Shown here: positions 16,922 through 45,020 of the stretch, piece by piece
Numbering within the stretch: position 1 is the first letter of the stretch
How the letters are laid out: each line of letters opens with the position of its first letter
NCBI RefSeq assembly: GCF_017592475.1
Contig: NZ_JAGFNP010000008.1
Coordinates: 1-64,000, forward strand
DNA length: 64,000 nucleotides
Source: Glycomyces niveus
GTDB lineage: Bacteria > Actinomycetota > Actinomycetes > Mycobacteriales > Micromonosporaceae
Direction: 5' to 3'
The notes under the pieces: model-generated
Database searches by the model: none
What the model was told of the DNA's origin: nothing
The model's input: only the letters and a program-made list of their open reading frames with translations
Translations under genes and position numbers: made by a program

Positions 16922-18379
16922 TTAGACGGCCATGTCGACGAAGCGCGAGAGGTGCAGCTGGGCCGCGACGGTGATGGTGTCCGTCGCGCCGTTGCGGTGC
17001 TTGGCGACGATGAAGTCGGCCTCGCCCGCGCGCGGCGACTCCTTGTCGTAGTAGTCCTCGCGGTGCAGCAGGATGACCACGTCGGCGTCCTGCTCGAGCG
17101 AACCGGACTCGCGGAGGTCGGAGAGCTGCGGGCGCTTGTCGGTGCGCTGCTCGGGACCGCGGTTGAGCTGCGCGACCGCGATCACCGGGCACTGCACCTC
17201 CTTGGCCAGGAGCTTCAGACCACGGGAGATCTCCGAGACCTCCTGCTGCCGCGACTCGGTCTTCTTCGGCGAGGTCATGAGCTGCAGGTAGTCGACCACG
17301 ATGAGCTTGAGGTCGTGGCGCTGCTTGAGCCGCCGGGCCTTGGCCCGGATCTCCATCATGGTCATCGACGCGGTGTCGTCGACGAACAGCGGCGCCTCGG
17401 AGATGTCGCCCATGCGCTTGGCCAGGCGCGTCCAGTCGTCGTCCGAGAGGTCGCCCGAGCGCAGGACGTGCATCGGCACCCGCGTCTCGGCGCTCAAGAG
17501 CCGCATCACGATCTCGAGCTTGCTCATTTCGAGGCTGAACAGGGCCGCGGCGTGCCGGTGGTGGAGCGAGGCGTGCCGCATGAAGTCCATGGCCGCCGTG
17601 GACTTGCCCGCGCCGGGACGCCCGGCGACGATGATGAGCTGCCCGGCCTGCAGGCCCGAGAGGAGCCGGTCGAGGTCGGCGAAGCCCGTGGGGATGCCGG
17701 TCATGAGGCCCTGGCTCGCGCCGATCGCCTCGATCTCGTCCATCGCGGGCTGGAGGAGGTCGGAGAGGACCGCGAAGTCCTCGCTCTGGCGGTTGTCGGT
17801 GACCTCGTAGACGGCCTGCTGGGCGAGGTCGACGAGGTCGTCGATGTCGCGCCCGCCCTGGCCGCCGCCGTAGCCGTACTGGACGACCTTCGTGCCGGCC
17901 TCGATGAGGCGCCGCAGGATCGCCTTCTCCTTGACGATCTTCGCGTAGTACCCGGCGTTCGCGGCCGTGGGCACGGCGTTGAGGAGGTCGTGGAGGTACG
18001 GGCCGCCGCCGATCTTGGCGAGGTCGCCGGAGTCGGCGAGCGCCGCTGCGATGGTGACGGCGTCGGCGGGCTCGCCGTTGCCGAACTTCTCGATGATCGC
18101 GTCGAAGACCATGCCGTGCTTGGGCTGGTAGAAGTCGCCCGGGCCGAGCACTTCGATGACGTCGGCGATCGCGTCCTTGCTCATGAGCATGCCGCCGAGG
18201 ACGGACATCTCGGCCTGGTGGTCCTGGGGCGGGGTGCGCTCGTAGGTGCGGGCGCCGCCGCCCCCGCCTCCGCCGTCCGCGAAGGGGTCCTCAGGCGGGG
18301 TGTCGAAATAGGAGTTGCTGCGGGAACCGTTGGCGCCGTTCACCCTCGAGTAGACGCCTTCCGCCGACACGTCGGTCAT
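16922..18379 (-). CDS. dnaB: Replicative DNA helicase DnaB
   Basis: This 485-residue hexameric helicase unwinds DNA at the replication fork. The N-terminal domain has TPPQDHQAEMSVLGGML and FYQPKHGMVFDAI. The RecA-like domain has GRPGAGKSTAAMDF (Walker A), KLIVVDYLQLM (Walker B) and QLNRGPEQRTDKRP. No intein interrupts it, unlike some actinobacterial dnaB genes. ATG 18379 is preferred because GAGGGGG lies 8 bases upstream; GTG 18400 is the alternative. It is on the same strand as the rplI operon, but a divergent membrane gene and a cluster of DnaA-like boxes lie between. Confidence 0.96.
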   Translation of the reverse strand: MTDVSAEGVYSRVNGANGSRSNSYFDTPPEDPFADGGGGGGGARTYERTPPQDHQAEMSVLGGMLMSKDAIADVIEVLGPGDFYQPKHGMVFDAIIEKFGNGEPADAVTIAAALADSGDLAKIGGGPYLHDLLNAVPTAANAGYYAKIVKEKAILRRLIEAGTKVVQYGYGGGQGGRDIDDLVDLAQQAVYEVTDNRQSEDFAVLSDLLQPAMDEIEAIGASQGLMTGIPTGFADLDRLLSGLQAGQLIIVAGRPGAGKSTAAMDFMRHASLHHRHAAALFSLEMSKLEIVMRLLSAETRVPMHVLRSGDLSDDDWTRLAKRMGDISEAPLFVDDTASMTMMEIRAKARRLKQRHDLKLIVVDYLQLMTSPKKTESRQQEVSEISRGLKLLAKEVQCPVIAVAQLNRGPEQRTDKRPQLSDLRESGSLEQDADVVILLHREDYYDKESPRAGEADFIVAKHRNGATDTITVAAQLHLSRFVDMAV

Positions 18380-18490
18380 GCCGTCCACCCCCTCGGTCAC
18401 CGTGCGTTCATGGAGAATGTACCGCCTGGATACGACAGATCGGCGGCGTCAACGACGCTATGTCGCGCCGCGCACGGTTGCAAACGGGCC

Positions 18491-18631
18491 TGTGGACAAC
18501 CCTGTGGACAAGGCTGTGGATAACCTGTGGATAACCGGGTCCGGCCTGTGGACAACCTGTGGACAGTTACGTGAATGCGGCTCCAATTGCAGCGTTCACC
18601 TGTGGCGACGTTGTCCACGGCCTGTGGATGG
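18491..18631. promoter_or_regulatory. Cluster of eight DnaA-box-like motifs upstream of dnaB
   Basis: TGTGGACAA or TGTGGATAA (complements of TTGTCCACA and TTATCCACA) occurs at 18491, 18503, 18515, 18526 and 18547. A TGTGGACAG variant is at 18558, TTGTCCACG at 18611 and TGTGGATGG at 18623. Six lie in the same orientation with steps of 12, 12, 11, 21 and 11 bases, close to one helical turn each. Established knowledge: DnaA binds these nonamers. Whether this is a regulatory site for dnaB, a DnaA reservoir or something else is inference. Confidence 0.75.
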
Positions 18632-18701
18632 AGATTCGTTCGTGCCAACTTGCGGCTAAGGTGAGGGGCGACCCCGGCACGGACCAGAGGAGCGAGGCCC
18701 C

Positions 18702-19091
18702 ATGAACGCCCCCCGGCAACCCGAGCGCAGGCCCCGGCTCGACCCCGACGGCGACGACCGCCCGGGGGAGCGGGCGTTCACGCCGACGCTGCTCGTGACG
18801 CTCGCGTGGTACGCCGTGCCGATGTTCGTCTATCTGGCGTGGGTGGTCTCGCAGCCGGCGGTGGACGCGACGTGCGCGGAGCGCGGCTGCACGGTGGCCG
18901 GGCGGCTCTCGGCGGCGATCGCGGGCGGCTGGGCGTGGACGCTCTCGGCGCTCACGGCGAGCCTCCTCGTGGCGGTCCTGCTCCGGCTGCCGCGCGCCGG
19001 CTGGCGCGCCGGCGTCGCCGGCTCGGCGGCGGCGATCCTCGGCGCCGGACTCGTGACGGTGGTGCTGCGGACGGCCGGGTGGGTGATCTGA
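18702..19091 (+). CDS. Three-helix membrane protein of unknown function
   Basis: This 129-residue protein begins with a hydrophilic Pro/Arg-rich N-terminus (1-27). Three hydrophobic helices follow, at about residues 29-50, 70-93 and 100-125. The loop VDATCAERGCTVAG between the first two carries two cysteines that could form a disulfide outside the cell. AGAGGAGCGAGG precedes the ATG. It is divergent from dnaB and shares the DnaA-box region with it. No family recognised. Confidence 0.7.
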   Translation: MNAPRQPERRPRLDPDGDDRPGERAFTPTLLVTLAWYAVPMFVYLAWVVSQPAVDATCAERGCTVAGRLSAAIAGGWAWTLSALTASLLVAVLLRLPRAGWRAGVAGSAAAILGAGLVTVVLRTAGWVI

Positions 19092-44980: not shown

Positions 44981-45020
44981 TGTGGATAACCGAATCAGAG
45001 GAAAGTCACGCTGTGGATTA
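44981..45020. promoter_or_regulatory. Two DnaA-box-like nonamers upstream of the DUF4192 gene
   Basis: TGTGGATAA (44981-44989) and TGTGGATTA (45012-45020) flank a sequence next to the AT-rich stretch AATTAATTTTTG (~44967-44978). Their role is unknown. Confidence 0.5.

What the first reader, a model, noticed from the sequence alone, without database searches (positions are those of the whole stretch)
18491..18631. Helically phased cluster of eight DnaA-box-like nonamers next to dnaB
Seen in sequence: eight TGTGGAYAA-type sites within 141 bases. Six are in the same orientation with steps of 12, 12, 11, 21 and 11 bases, close to helical periodicity. Established knowledge: DnaA binds TTWTNCACA boxes, and phased boxes form DnaA filaments. 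The cluster is between dnaB and a divergent membrane gene, not between dnaA and dnaN, so it is not the expected oriC. It could couple dnaB expression to DnaA, or act as a DnaA reservoir like datA.
Basis: partly seen in the sequence, partly recalled or inferred. Interest (0 to 1): 0.7.

Follow-up and report, generated by a model that had tools for sequence, protein, structure and literature searches.

The report
Phased DnaA-box array at dnaB promoter
Just upstream of the gene for the replicative DNA helicase, this soil bacterium carries a row of binding sites for the replication initiator DnaA, most facing the same way and one or two DNA turns apart, and the same kind of layout recurs at this gene in many related bacteria, which suggests that the initiator directly controls the supply of helicase.

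Summary
Window 18491-18631 holds five perfect TTRTCCACA DnaA boxes and three weaker ones. Six same-facing boxes have steps of 12, 12, 11, 21 and 11 bp, just upstream of dnaB in a Glycomyces genome. It is not chance. The genome has 54 perfect boxes, and five lie here. Twenty of 22 Glycomyces genomes keep all six boxes while spacers vary. In 140 genomes (90 genera, 48 families), 85 of 90 genera have at least one same-facing box upstream of dnaB; a flanking control gives 2 of 87. Box distances fall on multiples of about 11 bp. The array tracks dnaB, not the divergent membrane gene. In Glycomyces it ends 7 bp before a conserved TTGCAA-17-TAGCGT promoter-like element. It lacks the AT-rich stretch found at oriC, which lies between dnaN and dnaA. 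DnaA is already reported to bind upstream of dnaB in mycobacteria, where a mutant that binds less under-expresses dnaB (PMC7738170). Best reading: a conserved, probably activating, DnaA-responsive control element of dnaB. A datA-like titration role is not excluded. What appears new is the class-wide, helically phased, promoter-adjacent architecture.

The parts
16922..18379 (-). dnaB, replicative DNA helicase (485 aa; ATG at 18379, possible upstream GTG at 18400)
   Evidence: TIGR00665 above cut-off; ATG and an AGGGGG-type ribosome-binding-like stretch seen in the alignment of 22 Glycomyces
18455..18460 (-). putative -10 element TAGCGT of dnaB
   Evidence: GACATAGCGTC is identical in the 22 aligned Glycomyces; 10 of 11 columns -84..-74 invariant; inferred, no transcript data
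18478..18483 (-). putative -35 element TTGCAA of dnaB, 17 bp from the -10
   Evidence: TTTGC invariant in 22 Glycomyces, the following bases vary; not found by the strict E. coli-type scan
18491..18499 (-). DnaA box 6 (promoter-proximal), TTGTCCACA
18503..18511 (-). DnaA box 5, TTGTCCACA
18515..18523 (-). DnaA box 4, TTATCCACA
18526..18534 (-). DnaA box 3, TTATCCACA
18547..18555 (-). DnaA box 2, TTGTCCACA
18558..18566 (-). DnaA box 1, CTGTCCACA (1 mismatch; perfect TTGTCCACA in most of the 22 Glycomyces)
18611..18619 (+). distal DnaA-box-like site of an inverted pair, TTGTCCACG
18623..18631 (-). distal DnaA-box-like site, CCATCCACA, 65 bp from box 1 (some pair of same-facing boxes 64-67 bp apart occurs in 28 of 90 genera)
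18702..19091 (+). divergent small membrane-like protein gene (129 aa, no Pfam or NCBIfam match), a neighbour rather than part of the array
   Evidence: found upstream of dnaB only in Glycomyces and 5 other genera of 90

Best explanation
The cluster is a DnaA-binding control element of dnaB. DnaA molecules bind six same-facing boxes, spaced one or two helical turns apart, so they line up on one face of the DNA and can contact each other (inferred). The promoter-proximal box ends 7 bp upstream of the putative -35 of dnaB, so the DnaA assembly would sit against RNA polymerase and most likely activate it (inferred). Helicase supply would thereby follow the level or state of DnaA, which recruits that helicase to oriC. 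Shown here: box sequences, geometry, conservation, attachment to dnaB. Shown by others in mycobacteria: DnaA binding upstream of dnaB, and reduced dnaB expression in a DnaA mutant that binds less there. Inferred: binding and activation in Glycomyces.
For: Five of the genome's 54 perfect boxes lie here. Twenty of 22 Glycomyces keep all six boxes at 1 mismatch or less, and 14 of 22 have six perfect ones. Boxes have mean column identity 0.97 (TCCACA cores 0.98) against 0.80 in the spacers and 0.68 in the adjacent stretch. In 22 Glycomyces genomes, 75 of the 78 closely phased perfect box pairs are upstream of dnaB, and the reversed pattern occurs 0 times (with coordinates). Class-wide, 85 of 90 genera have at least one same-facing box against 2 of 87 in a flanking control; same-facing boxes 7.7 per kb against 1.3 opposite-facing (6.3 against 1.4 without Glycomyces). 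Box distances are periodic, R = 0.745 against at most 0.231 in 2000 randomisations; six off-phase bins hold 0 of 90 genera each. TTTGC and GACATAGCGTC next to the array are invariant in 22 Glycomyces; promoters found without reference to boxes in 10 genera have boxes 15, 27 and 38 bp upstream in 7 of 10 each. DnaA of this genome has the standard domains. Mycobacterial binding and expression data: PMC7738170. Caulobacter dnaB also listed in the DnaA regulon: PMC8203912.
Against: No binding or expression data were found for Glycomyces. The promoter is inferred; a strict TTGACA/TATAAT scan finds none, and the looser promoter pattern is detectable in only 19 of 90 genera, with boxes at the expected places in 8-9 of those 19. 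Four of 90 genera show no same-facing box in any sampled genome (one with only 258 bp available), and 16 of 48 families never have two. Opposite-facing boxes also occur in 33 of 90 genera. The activating sign rests on one mutant in another family. A titration role would also select for strong, conserved boxes.
Confidence: 0.7

Rival explanations
1. The cluster is mainly a DnaA sink near the origin (datA-like, as described for DnaA-box clusters of Bacillus subtilis and Streptomyces coelicolor): it binds many DnaA molecules, is duplicated early in replication, and so delays re-initiation. The position beside dnaB is then incidental.
For: Origin-proximal in relatives: dnaA-dnaB distance 36-116 kb in 19 of 24 genomes and 186-439 kb in the other five (from coordinates), and in three Glycomyces about 39, 107 and 125 kb. 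Outside coding DNA no other place in this genome has as many perfect boxes so close together. Clusters with such a role are cited in PMC4585315 and PMC5742627 (passages).
Against: A sink needs neither a helical register, nor a short fixed distance to a promoter, nor attachment to one gene across most of a class. It does not account for the reduced dnaB expression with a DnaA mutant that binds the site less (PMC7738170).
Confidence: 0.25
2. DnaA bound to the array represses dnaB, as DnaA acts on its own gene in several bacteria.
For: Autoregulation by DnaA at its own promoter is reported for several bacteria (PMC8203912, passages). Cooperative binding next to a -35 could also block polymerase.
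Against: In Glycomyces no box of the array overlaps the putative -35, -10 or expected start site, and the mycobacterial mutant points to activation.
Confidence: 0.15
3. The cluster is a second replication origin, or a relic of one.
For: It shares with the likely oriC of this genome a run of same-facing boxes at 11-12 bp steps (C2:59957-60022).
Against: No AT-rich stretch: minimum 50% GC over 40 bp, reached inside the boxes, against 30% at oriC. A region with 16 boxes lies between dnaN and dnaA.
Confidence: 0.02
4. Chance, a tandem duplication or a coding repeat that happens to look like DnaA boxes.
For: Such a coding repeat exists elsewhere in the same genome (C8:80171-80326, eight sites reading GYPQ).
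Against: The stretch is intergenic, the spacers between boxes differ between species while boxes stay, and orthologous positions carry boxes in 85 of 90 genera.
Confidence: 0.01

Closest known systems
DnaA-bound region upstream of dnaB (Rv0057 region) in Mycobacterium tuberculosis and M. smegmatis (Hicks et al. 2020, PMC7738170)
   Same: DnaA site directly upstream of the same gene. Genomes of family f8, probably Mycobacterium (DnaB of one is nearly identical to PDB 2r5u; that 2r5u is the M. tuberculosis protein is recalled), have phased same-facing boxes there (steps 65 and 11 in two genomes, 44 and 33 in one each).
   Different: In the passages read, that work reports binding and expression; I saw no description of a phased array, a fixed distance to the promoter, or conservation outside mycobacteria. 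The Glycomyces array has more and stronger boxes.
datA of E. coli and the DnaA-box clusters outside oriC of B. subtilis and S. coelicolor (cited in PMC5742627, PMC4585315, PMC13220808; original papers not held)
   Same: Clusters of DnaA boxes away from oriC; those of B. subtilis and S. coelicolor are described as close to oriC.
   Different: Here the boxes are same-facing, in helical register, and tied to dnaB over much of a class; titration not shown.
dnaB of Caulobacter crescentus as a member of the DnaA regulon (Hottes et al. 2005, via a passage of PMC8203912)
   Different: A very distant lineage; in the passage read no array geometry is given.
likely oriC of the same genome (C2:59773-60130)
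   Same: Same box type and a six-box run with steps 11, 12, 11, 11, 12.
   Different: oriC has an AT-rich stretch and 16 boxes, 13 of them imperfect; the dnaB array has no such stretch and better boxes.

Membership tests
DnaA-binding promoter element of dnaB (as in mycobacteria) | several high-affinity-type DnaA boxes within about 300 bp upstream of dnaB | tested here: met
DnaA-binding promoter element of dnaB (as in mycobacteria) | conserved at the orthologous position in relatives | tested here: met
   20 of 22 Glycomyces with all six boxes; 85 of 90 genera with at least one, 63 of 90 with at least two
DnaA-binding promoter element of dnaB (as in mycobacteria) | placed next to a promoter of dnaB | tested here: inconclusive
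   conserved TTTGC and GACATAGCGTC in Glycomyces, but the pattern is found in only 19 of 90 genera, the strict scan found none, and there are no transcript data
DnaA-binding promoter element of dnaB (as in mycobacteria) | DnaA binds it and changes dnaB expression | not testable with these tools
   reported for mycobacteria in PMC7738170 (passages), not for this genus
oriC | AT-rich unwinding element beside the boxes | tested here: not met
   minimum GC over 40 bp is 50% here against 30% at the dnaA-dnaN region
oriC | position beside dnaA/dnaN in this lineage | tested here: not met
   dnaA, dnaN and the 16 boxes between them are on contig C2
datA-like DnaA sink | cluster of strong boxes near the origin | tested here: met
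   boxes; distance measured in relatives, not in this draft genome:
datA-like DnaA sink | loss causes extra initiations; in E. coli, IHF-dependent hydrolysis of DnaA-bound ATP | not testable with these tools
   needs a deletion strain and replication measurements

The most novel reading that the evidence does not exclude
Most of the class Actinomycetes inherited one ancestral control switch at dnaB. A one-sided, helically phased DnaA assembly, built like the DnaA run at oriC but docked against a promoter instead of an unwinding element, activates helicase transcription only once DnaA is abundant enough to fill the array, so readiness to initiate and helicase supply rise together.
Probability: 0.4. 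Interest if true: 0.75.

Novelty: new variant of a known kind. Interest (0 to 1): 0.62.

Why it matters
It gives a sequence-level rule (same-facing boxes at multiples of about 11 bp; in Glycomyces and some other genera the last one ends 6-7 bp before the promoter) for a regulatory link between the replication initiator and the helicase it recruits. It would generalise a binding peak reported in mycobacteria to most of the class Actinomycetes, which includes antibiotic producers and pathogens. It makes a standing question testable: does DnaA in these bacteria time replication only at oriC and by titration, or also by controlling helicase supply? The natural range of box numbers and spacings across genera is a ready-made series for promoter assays.

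Tried and rejected
Second origin: rejected, no AT-rich stretch, and a separate box-rich dnaN-dnaA region exists. Chance, duplication or coding repeat: rejected by conservation of boxes but not of spacers; the coding look-alike at C8 shows that such artefacts exist. Control of the divergent membrane gene as main role: disfavoured, because that gene is upstream of dnaB only in Glycomyces plus five other genera (one of those hits is weak, E = 0.001). Universal feature of the phylum: not supported. Of 53 genomes of other classes with a DnaB match I looked at 25 loci; 3 were skipped for short length; 8 of the remaining 22 had at least one and 3 at least two same-facing boxes. Class-wide promoter motif: only partly found (10 genera strict; 19 relaxed).

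Rows left out before the counts. From: G026 (no match), G060 (weak match only), G049 (partial, 46% identical match) and a second dnaB-like copy in G031. From: five genomes without a match (G064, G134, G137, G142, G154) and seven not used: G108 and G081 (contig ends), and G109, G119, G125, G130 and G143 (not fetched). For the far control, 3 of 90 genera lacked sequence. The distance bins were chosen after seeing the distance list; the randomisation did not use bins. The genera are related, so the 90 are not independent; a one-per-family check gave 28 of 31 promoter-proximal distances in register.

Literature: the papers on S. coelicolor clusters (Smulczyk-Krawczyszyn 2006) and B. subtilis clusters (Okumura 2012) are not held. 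I know them from citing passages and recall. From memory only: one S. coelicolor cluster, named H24, may lie near dnaB; I could not check this, and if so part of the class-wide pattern was seen in 2006. In the listings of eight searches the only paper in which I saw DnaA upstream of dnaB in actinobacteria was PMC7738170; most listed papers were seen as title and abstract start only. Eight papers were opened for passages; PMC9610160 and PMC13121528 were irrelevant.

Full report
Observation. Window 18491-18631 contains five perfect TTRTCCACA boxes and three weaker ones; the six tandem boxes have steps of 12, 12, 11, 21 and 11 bp. The window matches TTRTCCACA with up to one mismatch 17 times against 5.3 expected, and none of 100 shuffles reached that number. 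In the whole genome (5.26 Mb, 28 contigs) there are 54 perfect boxes against 8 for the pattern read backwards, and five are here. The only other group of five perfect boxes, C8:80195-80326, lies inside a coding sequence and reads as a GYPQ repeat.

Setting. The minus-strand gene 18379-16922 is dnaB (TIGR00665 above cut-off). rplI lies on the far side of a small divergent gene (18702-19091), which has no Pfam or NCBIfam match. The named records with nearly identical DnaB are Glycomyces. The genome's dnaA is on contig C2, with 16 boxes (up to one mismatch) between dnaN and dnaA (dnaN by TIGR00663). I take this as oriC. It has a 40-bp stretch of 30% GC, while the dnaB upstream region never falls below 50%. 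It also has a same-facing run with steps 11, 12, 11, 11, 12, so the dnaB array resembles that part of oriC without an unwinding element.

Conservation in the genus. In 22 Glycomyces genomes (the window's and 21 others) 20 have all six boxes with at most one mismatch and 14 have six perfect ones. Of the two exceptions one has lost two boxes by a short deletion (G020) and one has two mismatches in box 2 (G002). In the alignment, boxes have mean column identity 0.97 (TCCACA cores 0.98), spacers inside the array 0.80, and the stretch between the array and the distal pair 0.68. A distal inverted pair of box-like sites (18611 and 18623 in the window) is also conserved (0.89). A search of the 22 genomes for two perfect boxes 2-3 bp apart gave 78 matches: 75 immediately upstream of dnaB and 3 elsewhere; the reversed pattern gave none (with coordinates). 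Two of the three lie directly at the 3' end of dnaA (G002, G018); the third (G015:C4:23032) was not resolved.

Conservation in the class. A DnaB match was found in 60 of 61 genomes (the window's and its relatives) and in 93 of 98 genomes drawn from the class, and upstream regions were fetched (besides loci returned). After dropping the rows listed under Tried and rejected, 140 genomes remained (90 genera, 48 families; 22 are Glycomyces and 14 more are of the same family). Between 500 and 100 bp upstream of the matched part of dnaB, same-facing boxes (up to one mismatch) occur at 7.7 per kb and opposite ones at 1.3 per kb. Without Glycomyces these are 6.3 and 1.4. 1500-800 bp upstream the same-facing rate is 0.07 per kb, and inside the gene 0.02 per kb. 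With one genome per genus, 85 of 90 genera have at least one same-facing box, 63 at least two and 41 at least three; opposite-facing 33, 7 and 3; an equally long flanking control gives 2, 0 and 0 of 87. Four genera have none in any sampled genome, one of them with only 258 bp of upstream sequence available. In other classes of the phylum the pattern is mostly missing: 8 of 22 analysable loci have at least one and 3 of 22 at least two same-facing boxes (25 of 53 matched genomes looked at).

Helical register. Among 235 distances up to 140 bp between same-facing boxes (one genome per genus, Glycomyces excluded) values up to about 77 bp cluster at 11-12, 22-23, 32-34, 44-45, 53-56, 64-67 and 75-76 bp; beyond that the register blurs. 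The strength of periodicity over all 235 is 0.745 against at most 0.231 in 2000 randomisations. By genus, seven on-phase bins hold 9-28 of 90 genera and six off-phase bins hold 0 of 90 each (bins chosen after seeing the list). Taking one promoter-proximal distance per family, 28 of 31 lie within 1.7 bp of a multiple of 10.9 bp, where about 31% would be expected.

Promoter. In Glycomyces the array is followed by TTTGC and GACATAGCGTC, both invariant in the 22 genomes; in the window this reads TTGCAA, 17 bp, TAGCGT, and the last box ends 7 bp before the -35. Taking promoters by their own pattern (TTTG, 18-20 bases, TANNGT), 10 genera in 4 families have one, and boxes (at least 7 of 9 letters) sit 15, 27 and 38 bp upstream of TTTG in 7 of 10 genera each. 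That pattern occurs in 32 of 140 upstream regions, 22 of them Glycomyces, and in 0 of 137 flanking regions. A looser pattern is found in 19 of 90 genera and in no flanking region; boxes stand at the corresponding places in 8-9 of the 19. In the other 71 genera I did not identify the promoter by pattern. A strict E. coli-type scan found no promoter in the window stretch. In families f32, f33 and most of f41 a perfect or near-perfect box close to where the promoter is expected is reversed.

Which gene it belongs to. The divergent gene is detectable upstream of dnaB in 27 of 140 loci: all 22 Glycomyces and one each of five other genera, one of those weak. The array is far more widespread, so it belongs to dnaB.

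Mechanism. DnaA of this genome matches TIGR00362 over its whole length and carries GGRDHTTVMHANKKI in the DNA-binding domain. In M. tuberculosis, purified DnaA enriched five regions, one of them upstream of dnaB, and ChIP-seq in M. smegmatis found homologues of the same five; [quoted passage not shown] Family f8 of the set is probably Mycobacterium (DnaB of one member nearly identical to PDB 2r5u; identity of that entry recalled), and its members show phased boxes upstream of dnaB. Together with a position just upstream of the -35 this favours activation. The sign is inferred; repression is less likely, and DnaA titration is a live alternative because the locus is origin-proximal in relatives: dnaA-dnaB distance is 36-116 kb in 19 of 24 genomes and 186-439 kb in five, assuming circular contigs for seven of them. 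In the window's own draft genome the two genes are on different contigs.

Novelty. DnaA-box clusters outside oriC and DnaA binding upstream of dnaB are known. In the searches named under Tried and rejected I found no description of a class-wide, same-facing, helically phased array tied to dnaB. The 2006 S. coelicolor paper could not be read, so this statement is limited.

Noticed in passing
G000:C8:80171-80326 (locus L003, 4172-4327): Eight TTATCCACA-type sites (steps 12, 12, 21, 24, 36, 21, 21) in frame inside an ORF (79896-83015, AAA_10 domain); read by eye they code GYPQ-like repeats. Coding coincidence or embedded DnaA sites; conservation not checked.
   Followed up: partly
G000:C5:75623 and 75769 (locus L010): Two perfect DnaA boxes between dnaX (ORF 73423-75606) and ybaB/ebfC (76081-76425), another replication-linked gene pair.
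   Followed up: partly
window 18611-18631 and its equivalents in 22 Glycomyces: Distal inverted pair of box-like sites, 65 bp from box 1 in the window; some pair of same-facing boxes 64-67 bp apart recurs in 28 of 90 genera.
   Followed up: partly
window 18639-18652: Well-conserved element CAAGTTGGCACGAA (dnaB strand) in Glycomyces between the distal pair and the divergent gene, with TGGCAC unchanged in the 22 aligned genomes; perhaps a promoter or another binding site.
   Followed up: no
window 44981-45020: One perfect and one near-perfect DnaA box, same strand, 31 bp apart.
   Followed up: no
G012, G022, G024, G032, G035 and others: dnaB reading frames of about 900-1340 codons whose DnaB matches are split, as expected for inteins.
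   Followed up: no
   Followed up: no
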